Of a stretch of 34,568 bases of DNA, positions 28,977 to 34,568 are shown one piece after another; the stretch's first letter is position 1, and every line of letters begins with the position of its first letter. The position numbers were made by a program, and so were the translations under genes. This DNA is from Synechococcus sp. M44_DOE_062 (GTDB taxonomy: Bacteria; Cyanobacteriota; Cyanobacteriia; Thermostichales; Thermostichaceae), in contig DVDX01000082.1 in assembly GCA_015295985.1 (NCBI GenBank), positions 1 to 34,568 on the forward strand, written 5' to 3'. The notes under the pieces are model-generated. The model had not been told where the DNA came from, did no database searches, and was given only the letters and a program-made list of their open reading frames with translations.

Positions 28977-30389
28977 ATGAGTACGACAATGATCCAAAAG
29001 CTCAAGAGCCAGGTGCCCCAGTGGCTTTGGCGACCGGCCAAGTGGAGTCTGACTGCCGCTCTAATGGCTGCGCTGGTTTTTCTATTCAGCCAGGGAACTG
29101 CCTTTGCTCAAGAGGCCGAGGAAGTTCAGAAACACGCTGACGTTGTTTGGACGATCGTGTCGGCGGCCTTGGTGTTCTTCATGCAGGCGGGGTTCGCCAT
29201 GGTGGAGACGGGCCTTACCCGCGCCAAGAATGCCGCCAACATCATGATGAAGAACTTGATGGACTTCTGCATGGGCTGTTGCGCCTTCTGGTTCATCGGG
29301 TTTGGCCTCATGTTCGGCAAAAGTGCTGGCTTCTTCGGCACCGACTGGTTTGCTTTTGGCTGGCAGCAGGCTTACGAGGCAGATGGTTGGCCCTTTACTT
29401 TCTTTGTCTTCCAGATGGTGTTTGCCGCTACTGCCGCCACCATTGTTTCCGGAGCAATGGCAGAGCGCACCAAGTTCTTGGCCTACTTGATCTACTCCAT
29501 CGTCATTTCTGGGCTCATCTACCCCATCTCTGGGGGTTGGGCCTGGAATGGGCTGTTCGGCGACTACAACGGCGGAACGGCTGGCTGGCTGGAAAATCTG
29601 GGCTACATCGACTATGCCGGTTCCGGTGTGGTGCACTTGGTGGGGGGCGCTGCGGCCTTGGCAGGTGCGATTGCGCTTGGCCCTCGCATTGGCAAGTATG
29701 GCCCCAATGGGGAGCCGCGGGCTATTCCCGGCCACAACCTGCCGCTGGGGATGTTGGGGGTGTTTATCCTCGCCTTGGGCTGGATTGGGTTTAACGCCGG
29801 TTCCACTACTTCAGCCTCTGTCGATATTGGCTGGATTGCCATGAATACGTTGCTGGCAGCTTCGGCTGGAGCAATTGGGGCGATGTTCACCTCTTGGGTT
29901 CATTTTGGCAAGCCGGATATGACCTTTGCCGCCAACGGTGTCCTGGCTGGCTTGGTGGGGATCACTGCCTCTTGCGATAGCGTCCATCCTCTGGGTGCTC
30001 TGATCATTGGCTCGGTGGCCGGGATCCTGGTGGTGATTTCGGTGGTGATCCTGGATACGGTGTTGAAAATTGATGACCCGGTGGGCGCGATTTCGGTACA
30101 CGGCACCTGCGGTATCTGGGGGGTGTTGGCGGCAGGGATCCCCTTCTTTGCCAATGCCAACTATGCCGAAGAGGTCACCTGGGCCCAATTTGGGGTACAA
30201 GTGGTGGGCGCTCTGGCCTACTTCCTCTGGTCTTTCATCACCTGCTTGATCCTGTTCTTTATCCTCAAGGCTGTAACCGGCCTGCGCACCAGCGCCGAGG
30301 AAGAGATCGCTGGTTTGGATGTGGGCGAGCATGGCAACGTGGCCTACCCCGACTTCGTTACTGCTGCCACCGATTCGGAGCAATCTTGA
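28977..30389 (+). CDS. amt1: Ammonium transporter, first copy
   Basis: The 470-residue product is an Amt/MEP channel. It starts with a signal peptide (hydrophobic segment about 24-44, ending TAFAQ). The channel core follows, with FFMQAGFAMVETGLTRAKNAANIMMKNLMDF, TIVSGAMAERTKFLAYLIYS, a WAWNGLFGDYNGGTAGWL stretch and the signature DYAGSGVVHLVGGAAALAG with the first twin histidine. The second twin histidine is in ISVHGTCGIWGVLAAGI. About eleven helices and a cytoplasmic tail (about 430-470) ending in DVGEHGNVAYPDF follow. It lies directly after glnB, whose P-II protein probably gates it. Large parts are near-identical in DNA to the next gene. The numbered symbol is for reference only. Confidence 0.97.
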   Translation: MSTTMIQKLKSQVPQWLWRPAKWSLTAALMAALVFLFSQGTAFAQEAEEVQKHADVVWTIVSAALVFFMQAGFAMVETGLTRAKNAANIMMKNLMDFCMGCCAFWFIGFGLMFGKSAGFFGTDWFAFGWQQAYEADGWPFTFFVFQMVFAATAATIVSGAMAERTKFLAYLIYSIVISGLIYPISGGWAWNGLFGDYNGGTAGWLENLGYIDYAGSGVVHLVGGAAALAGAIALGPRIGKYGPNGEPRAIPGHNLPLGMLGVFILALGWIGFNAGSTTSASVDIGWIAMNTLLAASAGAIGAMFTSWVHFGKPDMTFAANGVLAGLVGITASCDSVHPLGALIIGSVAGILVVISVVILDTVLKIDDPVGAISVHGTCGIWGVLAAGIPFFANANYAEEVTWAQFGVQVVGALAYFLWSFITCLILFFILKAVTGLRTSAEEEIAGLDVGEHGNVAYPDFVTAATDSEQS

Positions 30390-30509: not shown

Positions 30510-30523
30510 GTGTAGGTGGTTAC
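30510..30523 (+). promoter_or_regulatory. Imperfect NtcA-like site before the second amt gene
   Basis: GTG, eight bases, TAC: one base from the GTA-N8-TAC core, 52 bases upstream of the ATG at 30576. The spacing would allow a -10 box near 30545, but I see only a poor TAGCTC there. Suggestive only. Confidence 0.3.
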
Positions 30524-30575
30524 TGATCAGGAGAGGGAAATAGCTCAAGATCGAGGTGTGGGACTTGGAATCGAG

Positions 30576-32063
30576 ATGAAAAGTCAGATAGGTGAGACTG
30601 TTTTCTCTCCTCTTCGGCAGGGGATCCTTTTGGGTTTGAGGGCAGGGGGGAAAGTCCTGCTGGGGGTTGGAGCTTTGCTGGGGTTGGGGAGTTTGGTTGC
30701 CCCGCCTGCTCTGGCCCAGACGGATCTCACGGCTCTGGAACAGGCTCTCCCCCCCGAGGCTTGGGCTGAGCTACAAGCCTTACTGGAAACTCAGCAATAC
30801 CATGCCGACATCGTCTGGACAACGGTGGCCGGGGCGCTGGTGTTTTTCATGCAGGCAGGCTTTGCCATGGTGGAGGCAGGCTTCACCCGCGCCAAGAATG
30901 CCGCCAACATCATGATGAAGAACTTGATGGACTTCTGCTTCGGGGCCTGCGCTTTTTGGTTTTTGGGGTTTGGGCTGATGTTCGGATCCCATGTAGCCGG
31001 TTTTTTAGGCACCAACTGGTTTTTTTTCAACTGGCAACAGGGAGCAGAAGCCGGCAGTCAAAACGATGCTTGGCCTTTCACATTCTTCTGTTTCCAGTTG
31101 GTGTTTGCCGCTACCGCTGCCACCATTGTTTCCGGAGCGATGGCAGAGCGCACCAAGTTCTTGGCCTACTTGATCTACTCCATCGTCATTTCTGGGCTCA
31201 TCTACCCCATCTCTGGGGGTTGGGCCTGGAATGGCCTGTTTGCCGACTACAACGGTGGCACAGCCGGCTGGCTGGAAAATCTGGGCTACATCGACTTTGC
31301 CGGGTCGGGGGTGGTGCACTTGGTGGGCGGGGCTGCAGCTTTCGCAGGAACTTTGGTGCTGGGGCCGCGCTTGGGCAAGTATGGTCCCAATGGGGAGCCG
31401 CGGGCTATTCCGGGGCATAGTTTACCCTTGGGCATGTTGGGGGCGTTGATCCTGTGGCTGGGCTGGATTGGCTTTAATGCCGGCTCTACAACGGCAGCGA
31501 TTCCTGATATTGGCTGGATTGCTTTCAATACCCATTTGGCCGGGGCGGCAGGAGCCATCGGTGCTCTCTGTACTTCCTGGGCCATTTTTACCAAGCCGGA
31601 CATGACGTTTGCAGCCAATGGGACACTGGCAGGGCTGGTGGGCATTACTGCTCCTTGCAACACTGTTCATCCTTTGGGGGCAATCCTTATCGGCTCGGTG
31701 GCCGGGGTGTTGGTGGTGTTGTCGGTGCTGTTTATCGAGGGCACCTTGAAAGTGGATGACCCGGTGGGGGCGGTATCGGTACATGGGGTGTGCGGCGCTT
31801 GGGGGGTCATTGCTGCAGGGATCCCATGGTTTGCCCATGCGGAAGCGGGGGTGACTTGGGCGGTGTTGCCGGTACAGATTTTGGGGGTTATCGCCCTGGG
31901 GGGATGGTCTTTTATCTGTTGTCTGGCTTTGTTTTTGATTTTGAAGGGCACCATCGGTCTGCGCGTCTCGGCAGAAGAAGAGTTGGCCGGCTTGGATATC
32001 GGCGAGCACGGCAACATTGCCTACCCTGACTTTGTCACTGCTTCGGGGGAGTTGGAAGGTTGA
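30576..32063 (+). CDS. Ammonium transporter, second copy
   Basis: This product (495 residues from the ATG at 30576) is a second Amt channel in tandem with the first. It has a signal peptide (hydrophobic region about 20-48, ending PPALAQT) and a mature N-terminal insert of about 30 residues that the first copy lacks. The same core motifs follow: ADIVWTTVAGALVFFMQAGFAMVE, AERTKFLAYLIYS, DFAGSGVVHLVGGAAAFAG with the first twin histidine, and VSVHGVCGAWGVIAAGI with the second. The tail also ends DIGEHGNIAYPDF. A GTG at 30516 would add 20 residues; I prefer the ATG with GGA and GAG nearby. Extra residues follow the third helix (EAGSQND). ispD starts 46 bases after its stop. Confidence 0.95.
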   Translation: MKSQIGETVFSPLRQGILLGLRAGGKVLLGVGALLGLGSLVAPPALAQTDLTALEQALPPEAWAELQALLETQQYHADIVWTTVAGALVFFMQAGFAMVEAGFTRAKNAANIMMKNLMDFCFGACAFWFLGFGLMFGSHVAGFLGTNWFFFNWQQGAEAGSQNDAWPFTFFCFQLVFAATAATIVSGAMAERTKFLAYLIYSIVISGLIYPISGGWAWNGLFADYNGGTAGWLENLGYIDFAGSGVVHLVGGAAAFAGTLVLGPRLGKYGPNGEPRAIPGHSLPLGMLGALILWLGWIGFNAGSTTAAIPDIGWIAFNTHLAGAAGAIGALCTSWAIFTKPDMTFAANGTLAGLVGITAPCNTVHPLGAILIGSVAGVLVVLSVLFIEGTLKVDDPVGAVSVHGVCGAWGVIAAGIPWFAHAEAGVTWAVLPVQILGVIALGGWSFICCLALFLILKGTIGLRVSAEEELAGLDIGEHGNIAYPDFVTASGELEG

Positions 32064-32953: not shown

Positions 32954-34327
32954 TCAGCTCGGAAATTGGAAAGAAGAGTAAGGGAGAGGAAATCTAGGTT
33001 CGCTAGGAGCACTTTGAGAATCCCATCTCTTGTGATCCGTTGGAAATGAAAATGATAAGTTTAGCTGTTCAGGATCTGGTGCAAATGCGCTTAAGACCAA
33101 GTAAAAGACGAGATTAATGCACTCTTCACTTTCTGTAGCAACTTGCCGTTCCGAGAAGCGAATCACGACCCAGCCCCTATCCGCTAGATGAGTATCACGC
33201 CTGTTCTGTTTGCAATCGTTTATGGTATGTATTGGAGAACGCCAGTTGCCCTCAAGAAACCAGGGCTCATCAATCTCAATGTCAATAAGTAAGCTTTGTC
33301 TATTTCTAGATACCTGCATTGCAATATCAGGTGTGTAGCCTTTATGGTAGTAGCCACTCCATCCTTGTGCTTGTATGCTAATGGCTGCATTCTGCGGAAA
33401 CAGAGTAACTTCAAAGCCATACCTCTCTAGACTTTTCACTCGCTTCCTTAAAACATCTCGAAGGAAGTTATCGAATCTCCCGGATCGAGCATCAGAAGAT
33501 GCATTAGGACGCAAGCTTTGTTGCCTAAAACTCAGCCTTACGACCTCATCTTTGTGCTTTCTTTTAATGGCCTCACATTCTGCTTCCCACTGCCGTAAAG
33601 CTTCCTGATATTTCTCCCAATGCCTTCTTCCGATGAACGTACACTCTTCCTGCCAGCGGCGTAGGATTTCTTGACATCTCTCTTCATGCTTTCTTCTGAG
33701 ATCTTCGCACTCTGCCTCCCACTGCCGCAGGGCTTCTTGATGTTCTCTCAGTCTTTCTTGGTGGGCTTGGTTAAGGATTGCGCACTCTTCCTGCCACCGG
33801 CGCAGGTCGGTCTCTTGGTACCTCCTCAGGTCTTCTTCATGCCTTCTTCTGAGATCTTCGCACTCTGCTTCCCACTGCCGTAGGGCTTCTTGATGTTCTC
33901 TCAATCTTTCTTGGTGGGCTTGGTTAAGGACTGCACACTCTTCCTGCCACTGGCGTAGTGTAGTCCCTTGATATCTCCTCAAGTCTTCTTCGTGAATTCT
34001 TTTGAGATCTTCGCACTCTGCTTCCCACCGTCGCAGCGCTTCCTGATGTTCTCTCAGTCTTTCTTGGTGGGTTTGTCTAAGGGATTCACATTCTGACTCC
34101 CAATGGCGCAGATCTTCCTCATATTTTTGTTGGTGAACCCTTCTGATCCCCTCACATCTTACTTGCCACCAATGAACATCCTCCTGATATTTACTTAGTT
34201 TTGCTCGATGAGCCTGGATGAGAGCTTCGCATTCTGCTTCCCAGCAACGCAGAGCCTCTTCATGTTCCCTTATTCTTTCTGCTCTTTCTCTCTCGTATTT
34301 TTCTTTTCTCATATGTCCATGATTCAT
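32954..34327 (-). CDS. Ten-repeat W-x3-C-x6-H coiled-coil protein with C-terminal nuclease-like domain
   Basis: I do not recognise this as a named gene. Residues about 22-260 hold ten tandem helical repeats of 22, 25 or 26 residues, each with W-x3-C-x6-H (for example WEAECEDLRRRH, and WQEECAVLNQAH with one variation). All are strongly helical, charged and likely coiled coil. Residues about 284-415 form a globular domain: RFDNFLRDVLRKRVKSLERYGFEV, then GYTPDIAM (D334), LLIDIEIDEPW (D349, E351, D353, E354), SPIHTIND, an RRDTHLADRGW helix and VVIRFSERQV, ending with EECINLVFYL. This order, D ... (D/E)x(D/K) ... R-x5-7-GW-x-V-RF, is like PD-(D/E)XK nucleases, but the usual Lys of the E-x-K is Asp here. 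ATG is at 34327. It overlaps the gene before it by 68 bases in another frame. No GGATCC occurs in it. Confidence 0.75.
   Translation of the reverse strand: MNHGHMRKEKYERERAERIREHEEALRCWEAECEALIQAHRAKLSKYQEDVHWWQVRCEGIRRVHQQKYEEDLRHWESECESLRQTHQERLREHQEALRRWEAECEDLKRIHEEDLRRYQGTTLRQWQEECAVLNQAHQERLREHQEALRQWEAECEDLRRRHEEDLRRYQETDLRRWQEECAILNQAHQERLREHQEALRQWEAECEDLRRKHEERCQEILRRWQEECTFIGRRHWEKYQEALRQWEAECEAIKRKHKDEVVRLSFRQQSLRPNASSDARSGRFDNFLRDVLRKRVKSLERYGFEVTLFPQNAAISIQAQGWSGYYHKGYTPDIAMQVSRNRQSLLIDIEIDEPWFLEGNWRSPIHTINDCKQNRRDTHLADRGWVVIRFSERQVATESEECINLVFYLVLSAFAPDPEQLNLSFSFPTDHKRWDSQSAPSEPRFPLPYSSFQFPS
33698..34080 (-). repeat. 153-base direct repeats inside the coiled-coil gene
   Basis: The string GAGATCTTCGCACTCTGC begins at 33698, 33851 and 34004, exactly 153 bases apart each time (51 codons). 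The first two copies are near-identical over their full length on inspection; the third is partial and more diverged. Each 51-residue unit comprises two W-x3-C-x6-H modules. The similarity at silent sites suggests recent expansion. Confidence 0.85.
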
Positions 34328-34568
34328 AAAGAAAACGCGCTAGCGTTGTAACACTGCCAATGCCTACCGCAACAACGAACGCTGGAGCCCCTGCAACAAT
34401 CAAGCCAACGAGCACAGCAACCCCAGCACCAGCTGTTACTGCCGACCGCAGCTTGCTCATCAAAGGCTGAGGCAACTCAGGTAGATTTGGCCTAATTGGG
34501 CGCTTCGGCATTGAGGGTAGTTCAGGTTCCCTTGGGCGCTCCGGCATCCGTGGTGGCTCCGGCTCCGG
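34260..34568 (-). CDS. Proline-rich membrane protein, N-terminus beyond window edge
   Basis: The frame is open through the right edge (upstream residues visible are PEPEPPR), so the ATG at 34547 is probably not the start. The visible part is a Pro/Glu/Arg repeat region (PERPREPELPSMPKRPI and so on), then a hydrophobic region of about 45 residues with two likely membrane helices (AVTAGAGVAVLVGLIVAG and APAFVVAVGIGSVTTLA). A very basic tail, YEKRKIRERKSRKNKGT, follows. It ends at 34260, inside the start region of the coiled-coil protein, which lies in the +1 frame. The basic tail and the coiled-coil start read the same A-rich DNA in two frames. I infer a membrane anchor that may work with the next gene; function unknown. 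Confidence 0.65.
   Translation of the reverse strand, partial: PEPEPPRMPERPREPELPSMPKRPIRPNLPELPQPLMSKLRSAVTAGAGVAVLVGLIVAGAPAFVVAVGIGSVTTLARFLYESWTYEKRKIRERKSRKNKGT

What the first reader, a model, noticed from the sequence alone, without database searches (positions are those of the whole stretch)
32954..34327. Ten-repeat W-x3-C-x6-H helical protein fused to a nuclease-like domain
The sequence shows ten repeats with invariant Trp, Cys and His in fixed register. The Cys and His are seven residues apart, so they lie on the same face of a helix two turns apart. Every repeat could offer one Cys and one His, as a metal, heme or disulfide ladder or a pure packing motif. Behind it is a domain with D ... 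ExD ... RDTHLADRGWVVIRF order, similar to PD-(D/E)XK enzymes. A repeat scaffold plus a nuclease-like head is a layout seen in defence and DNA-repair proteins. I know no named family with this repeat, but I could not search.
Basis: partly seen in the sequence, partly recalled or inferred. Interest (0 to 1): 0.75.

Follow-up and report, generated by a model that had tools for sequence, protein, structure and literature searches.

The report
Membrane-anchored nuclease relative with lengthened stalk
The ten Trp-Cys-His repeats are real, but they are an enlarged version of a short helical stalk found across an uncharacterised cyanobacterial and Bacteroidota family that links a membrane hairpin to a DNA-nuclease-like domain, and this copy is split by a one-base frameshift and missing two conserved acidic residues.

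Summary
Observation confirmed: the 457-aa ORF at 32954-34327 (-) holds exactly ten W-x3-C-x6-H motifs, spaced 22/25/26 residues. The C-terminus is a DUF559/Vsr-like PD-(D/E)XK domain: Pfam score above cut-off and an AlphaFold model with pTM 0.81. It belongs to a large undescribed family, found in 105 of 390 cyanobacterial genomes searched and also in Bacteroidota.

The upstream ORF (34260-34568) and the start of contig C23 encode the 5' part of the same gene: a YPYVVLP motif, a proline-rich stretch and a membrane hairpin. A +1 frame change near an A4GA5 run splits it.

In 38 long-form relatives the linker between membrane and nuclease carries one Tyr/His per heptad (z=18). The W/C/H/Y residues form the equivalent stripe here, as coiled-coil core positions with stutters, lengthened about six-fold. 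A 'metal ladder' is not needed, but not excluded.

The enlarged repeat is unique to this genome. Repeats and domain evolved under purifying selection, yet two conserved acidic residues are substituted. The only other copy in the genus is broken by an IS element. Long-form relatives are often fused or near helicases, suggesting membrane-tethered DNA processing or defence. Activity is unshown.

The parts
32954..33520 (-). C-terminal DUF559/Vsr-like PD-(D/E)XK domain, residues 270-457 (core about 279-417)
   Evidence: Pfam DUF559 23.7 bits against a cut-off of 20.6; AlphaFold pLDDT 83.9, pTM 0.81, helix-strands-helix-strand order; profile found in 105 of 390 genomes; invariant E82, D84, E85, P86, H98, R108 kept, but E17->D and D105->Q (numbering from residue 270)
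33524..34327 (-). Helical stalk with ten W-x3-C-x6-H units, residues 1-268
   Evidence: core steps 4-3-4-4-3-4-3 in the 25-residue unit, mean 3.63 residues per turn; repeat-to-repeat dN/dS 0.27
34260..34568 (-). 5' part of the same gene in another frame: proline-rich stretch and membrane hairpin; cut off by the contig end
   Evidence: Homologous to, and colinear with, the N-terminal fragment of the G004 gene (L012:8051-8458)
34262..34341 (-). Overlap in which the +1 frame change must occur; A4 and A5 runs starting at 34307 and 34302
   Evidence: Stop positions in three frames; no Shine-Dalgarno-like sequence before the ORF2 ATG (sequence)
34550..34568 (-). 19-base overlap CCGGAGCCGGAGCCACCAC with the left end of contig G000:C23, which carries the start MEVQSRHLHPILKYVRDDYYPYVVLPHP...
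   Evidence: cobM follows on C23 as in G004

Best explanation
This is the 3' part of a split gene for a membrane-tethered, nuclease-like protein. The ancestral protein runs: short N-terminal [YF]P-x-I-L-x-P motif, proline-rich stretch, two-helix membrane hairpin, cytoplasmic coiled-coil stalk, DUF559/Vsr-like (PD-(D/E)XK) domain. In relatives the stalk is about 40 residues with one Tyr/His per heptad. Here it has been lengthened by tandem duplication to about 250 residues, a rod of roughly 38 nm if fully helical. W, C, H and Y are the core-facing residues of a stuttered coiled coil that oligomerises the stalk and holds the domain away from the membrane. The family probably cuts or binds DNA near the membrane, often together with an SF1/SF2 helicase, in DNA processing or defence. 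The window copy is probably recently inactivated or reduced: a +1 frameshift separates the anchor from the stalk, and two of the acidic residues conserved in the family are replaced. Shown by computation: fold class, family, architecture, split gene, stalk periodicity, purifying selection. Inferred: oligomerisation, membrane topology, DNA as substrate, defence role, loss of activity.
For: Family and fold. One gene: the G004 orthologue carries the N-terminal and C-terminal pieces on either side of a TnpB element at the same ispD-cobM site, and C23 carries the window gene's own start. Stalk: aromatic/His pairs at spacing 7, 127 observed against 34.8 expected (z 18.2), and at 14, 106 against 29.1 (z 16.6), in 38 relatives. 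Selection: dN/dS 0.34 between the two genomes and 0.27 among repeats. Frameshift: all G004 genes aligned to 16.5-33 kb of the window keep one frame. Helicases: 2 fused UvrD, neighbours HKD+SNF2, DEAD/MrfA-like, NERD+UvrD, RecD2; 10 of 27 long-form loci against 1 of 53 others (Fisher p 4e-5).
Against: No Foldseek hit reaches E 0.001. The DUF559 match covers only profile positions 64-104 of 109 and is not seen when the whole protein is scanned. The helicase comparison used queries taken from the long-form loci, and the other group is largely one syntenic Nostocales locus, so the p-value overstates. The window locus itself (ispD, cobM) has no helicase. A five-A run is also where a sequencing error would sit. 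No PADLOC system matches.
Confidence: 0.62

Rival explanations
1. The Cys/His stripe is a functional ladder: in a parallel oligomer each repeat offers Cys and His for metal, heme or disulfide, making the stalk a redox or metal sensor that controls the nuclease-like domain.
For: W, C and H are invariant in ten of ten units while other positions vary; repeats are under purifying selection; relatives use Tyr/His, hardly ever Cys, at these positions.
Against: Packing at core positions explains the spacing, and recent duplication (153-base units 88% alike) inflates apparent conservation. C and H are separated by two turns, not a known binding motif. No relative has the motif. The stalk is probably cytosolic, where disulfides are rare.
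Confidence: 0.12
2. The frame change is a sequencing or assembly error and the gene is intact, encoding one full-length membrane-anchored protein with a long stalk.
For: The shift lies within reach of an A4GA5 run; the contig ends about 260 bases away at a repeat; the downstream frame is open for 457 codons under purifying selection.
Against: No other frame disruption in the G004 orthologues aligned over 16.5-33 kb of the window; the genus's only other copy is also broken.
Confidence: 0.35
3. A programmed +1 frameshift or internal start makes two products, an anchored and a soluble form.
For: Both frames are open and overlap by about 80 bases.
Against: No Shine-Dalgarno-like sequence before the internal ATG; no known slippery or stop-codon +1 site; A5 is short for polymerase slippage; relatives are single ORFs.
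Confidence: 0.06
4. Decaying remnant with no function: the gene was acquired once in this genus and is being lost.
For: Absent from 4 of 6 genomes of the genus; in G001 a MATE-type transporter gene sits at the site. Both copies are interrupted, and two conserved acidic residues are lost.
Against: dN/dS 0.27-0.34 and no stop in the stalk or domain, so constraint lasted until recently.
Confidence: 0.4

Closest known systems
DUF559 (PF04480) / REase_MTES_1575 (PF18741), Vsr-like PD-(D/E)XK domains
   Same: Order of conserved motifs, IE[IV]D strand, His, D..R helix, GWxVIRF strand; Pfam match above the DUF559 cut-off
   Different: IDIEIDEP[YW] signature, extra C-terminal W...R..Y region, N-terminal membrane hairpin and stalk; in the window E->D and D->Q at conserved acidic positions
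EDxHD homing endonuclease I-Bth0305I (3r3p) and NGO0050 (3hrl)
   Same: Best target-normalised TM-scores among the 50 listed fold matches (0.73, 0.72)
   Different: Weak significance (E 0.8-0.9), 9-13% identity; the window gene is free-standing beside ispD, not shown to be intron-borne
Helicase-nuclease defence modules such as Gabija (GajB), NERD+UvrD and HKD+SNF2 candidates
   Same: Relatives are fused to or sit beside SF1/SF2 helicases of these kinds
   Different: No GajA, no PADLOC system call for the window protein, nuclease of another class and membrane-bound; the window locus has no helicase partner

Membership tests
DUF559 / Vsr-like PD-(D/E)XK | Profile match above the curated cut-off | tested here: met
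   23.7 bits against 20.6 for the isolated domain; 10 of 10 members match at E<=1. Not listed in the whole-protein scan.
DUF559 / Vsr-like PD-(D/E)XK | Alpha-beta-beta-beta-alpha-beta core | tested here: met
   AlphaFold H15-33, E37-40, E45-47, E66-72, E75-84, H103-114, E117-123; pTM 0.81
DUF559 / Vsr-like PD-(D/E)XK | Similarity to solved members of the superfamily | tested here: inconclusive
   Nuclease-rich top list, but no match at E<=0.001
DUF559 / Vsr-like PD-(D/E)XK | Full set of conserved acidic and His residues of the family | tested here: not met
   E17->D and D105->Q in the window; E82, D84, H98, R108 and D65 kept. The relatives keep the full set.
DUF559 / Vsr-like PD-(D/E)XK | Nuclease activity | not testable with these tools
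   Needs purified protein
EDxHD homing endonucleases | Residence in an intron or intergenic homing site with DNA-binding modules | not tested
   No intron or NUMOD search was made; a membrane hairpin and coiled coil occupy the non-catalytic part
Known anti-phage systems (PADLOC) | Profile match of the protein | tested here: not met
   Only weak ZorA and LmuB matches to the helical repeat region, E 0.002
Coiled coil | 3-4 hydrophobic periodicity over many turns | tested here: met
   Core steps 4-3-4-4-3-4-3 per 25 residues, dominant period 3.64, long helices predicted

The most novel reading that the evidence does not exclude
An undescribed, widespread family of membrane-tethered Vsr-like nucleases on a Tyr/His-heptad stalk works with helicases to destroy incoming DNA at the membrane, and in this lineage the stalk was enlarged into a Trp-Cys-His rod whose Cys/His ladder senses metal or redox state.
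Probability: 0.12. Interest if true: 0.7.

Novelty: new variant of a known kind. Interest (0 to 1): 0.42.

Why it matters
It brings to light a common cyanobacterial and Bacteroidota gene family, which we could not find described, that puts a nuclease-like domain on a membrane-anchored stalk and tends to travel with helicases. That is directly testable as a defence or DNA-uptake barrier. The window copy itself is a curiosity: a natural experiment in lengthening a coiled-coil stalk. If the Cys/His face does bind something, the repeat would be a new kind of protein ladder.

Tried and rejected
Close-relative search of genome contigs with the whole protein found nothing. PDB sequence searches with the repeat and with the domain profile (chance hits only) gave nothing. 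Phage records gave no match, and plasmids one distant relative on a Gloeothece plasmid. Whole-protein Pfam and NCBIfam scans gave only coiled-coil noise: SAM_1, TMP_4, antigen I/II. Heme binding: no C-x2-C-H motif in the repeats, and their spacing is explained by packing. A -1 frameshift was rejected because the third frame has stops at 34311 and 34272. ORF2 as an independent gene starting at MNHGHM was disfavoured: no Shine-Dalgarno-like sequence, and the homologous parts lie upstream in the other frame. Literature: two papers hold both DUF559 and cyanobacteria, neither describes this family. The original paper on I-Bth0305I is not held, so its catalytic residues were not mapped one by one.

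Full report
What is there. The ORF at 32954-34327 on the minus strand encodes 457 residues. W-x3-C-x6-H occurs ten times, starting at residues 29 to 247, and at most once in 2000 shuffles. The units are 22, 25 or 26 residues long. Aligned, only W, C and H are invariant. At DNA level the array contains 153-base units 88% alike, so it grew by tandem duplication. Between repeats dN/dS is about 0.27, so the protein pattern was kept by selection after duplication.

What the repeat is. Within a 25-residue unit the apolar and aromatic positions fall at W0, C4, L7, H11, L15, Y/H18, L22 and the next W25. These are steps of 4-3-4-4-3-4-3, meaning two heptads and one hendecad, the standard coiled-coil pattern with a stutter. 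The 22-residue units read as two hendecads. Overall there are about 3.63 residues per turn, so the stripe runs nearly straight along a helix. AlphaFold on the single sequence gives helices 3-118 and 123-262 with pLDDT mostly 70-89.

What the C-terminal domain is. The isolated domain matches Pfam DUF559 above its cut-off, and all ten sequences of the first alignment match it at E<=1. With 46 relatives AlphaFold gives pLDDT 83.9 and pTM 0.81, with the helix, strands, helix, strand order of PD-(D/E)XK enzymes. Foldseek finds no significant match, but many of the top hits are nucleases of this superfamily. The best target-normalised TM-scores (0.72-0.73) are NGO0050 (3hrl) and the EDxHD homing endonuclease I-Bth0305I (3r3p). 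EDxHD and PD-(D/E)xK enzymes are described as having similar active sites (PMC3943268).

The family. A profile of the domain finds 105 of 390 genomes of the class, in 56 of 160 genera (the weakest of these matches may be other DUF559 proteins). In named genomes there were 386 confirmed matches, with cyanobacteria and Bacteroidota among the 80 kept. Three forms occur: a long form with [YF]P-x-[IVL]-L-x-P, proline-rich stretch, membrane hairpin, stalk and domain; a short form without hairpin, some with a C-terminal zinc ribbon; and two long forms fused to a UvrD helicase. In 38 long-form linkers, aromatic or His residues recur at spacing 7 (127 observed, 34.8 expected, z 18) and 14 (z 17) and are depleted at most other spacings. 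So a Tyr/His-heptad stalk between membrane and nuclease-like domain is a family feature, and the window protein has an enlarged, Trp/Cys/His version of it. No fetched relative has even one W-x3-C-x6-H, and the stalk has no match at E<=1e-5 in 390 genomes other than its own.

The window ends at the end of contig C4. The overlapping ORF 34260-34568 encodes a proline-rich stretch and a hydrophobic hairpin. In G004 the same locus (amt, ispD, gene, cobM) holds a C-terminal piece and an N-terminal piece on either side of a TnpB element. The N-terminal piece contains YYPYVVLP and continues into the same proline-rich stretch and hairpin start as the window ORF. The matching start in the window genome lies at the left end of contig C23, which overlaps C4 by 19 bases and continues into cobM. 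So one gene spans C23 and C4. The two window ORFs are joined by a +1 frame change somewhere in 34341-34262, most simply one base in the A4GA5 run. The G004 genes aligned over 16.5-33 kb of the window all keep a single frame, which favours a real mutation, but a read-level check is needed.

State of the copy. Between G000 and G004 the domain has dN/dS 0.34. Yet the Glu conserved in 46 of 47 sequences is Asp here, and the Asp conserved in 46 of 47 is Gln, in G004 too (sequence). Four of six genomes of the genus show no match, and in G001 the ispD-cobM interval holds what reads as a MATE-type transporter gene, with no trace of this gene. The likely history is acquisition, use under selection, then recent inactivation in both carriers.

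Function. Long-form relatives have a helicase fused or within 5 kb in 10 of 27 loci, against 1 of 53 for other forms (Fisher p 4e-5). These include HKD+SNF2, DEAD/MrfA-like, NERD+UvrD and RecD2 types. The comparison is biased by query choice and by shared synteny in the short-form group. Together with the patchy distribution and plasmid-borne members, DNA processing or defence at the membrane is the best guess. It is an inference; PADLOC has no model for the protein.

Verdict. A real and unusual repeat, explained as an enlarged coiled-coil stalk of a membrane-tethered DUF559-like family that we could not find described. The window copy is probably a recent pseudogene or a mis-sequenced intact gene. 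The family is more interesting than the copy.

Noticed in passing
window 28977-30389 and 30516-32063: Two tandem ammonium transporter (amt) genes, about 77% alike; in G004 only one amt gene lies before ispD, so the second looks like a lineage-specific duplication or acquisition.
   Followed up: partly
L012:6763-8001 (G004): A TnpB-type transposase gene sits inside the orthologous gene, with the stalk and hairpin region missing, so insertion was accompanied by a deletion.
   Followed up: yes
L085:3077-4741 and about 34 other Nostocales loci: The short-form family member lies in a conserved neighbourhood with an AAA ATPase (IetA-like by PADLOC) and a DUF192 protein, partly on plasmids.
   Followed up: partly
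L111:3744-4514; also upstream genes in L062, L084, L113: A second DUF559-like gene lies directly upstream of the long-form gene with stop and start nearly touching, suggesting a two-nuclease operon.
   Followed up: partly
L158:1380-2878 (G001): A MATE-type transporter gene, apparently split over two ORFs, occupies the ispD-cobM interval where the window genome has the nuclease-like gene. Name from reading the sequence only.
   Followed up: no
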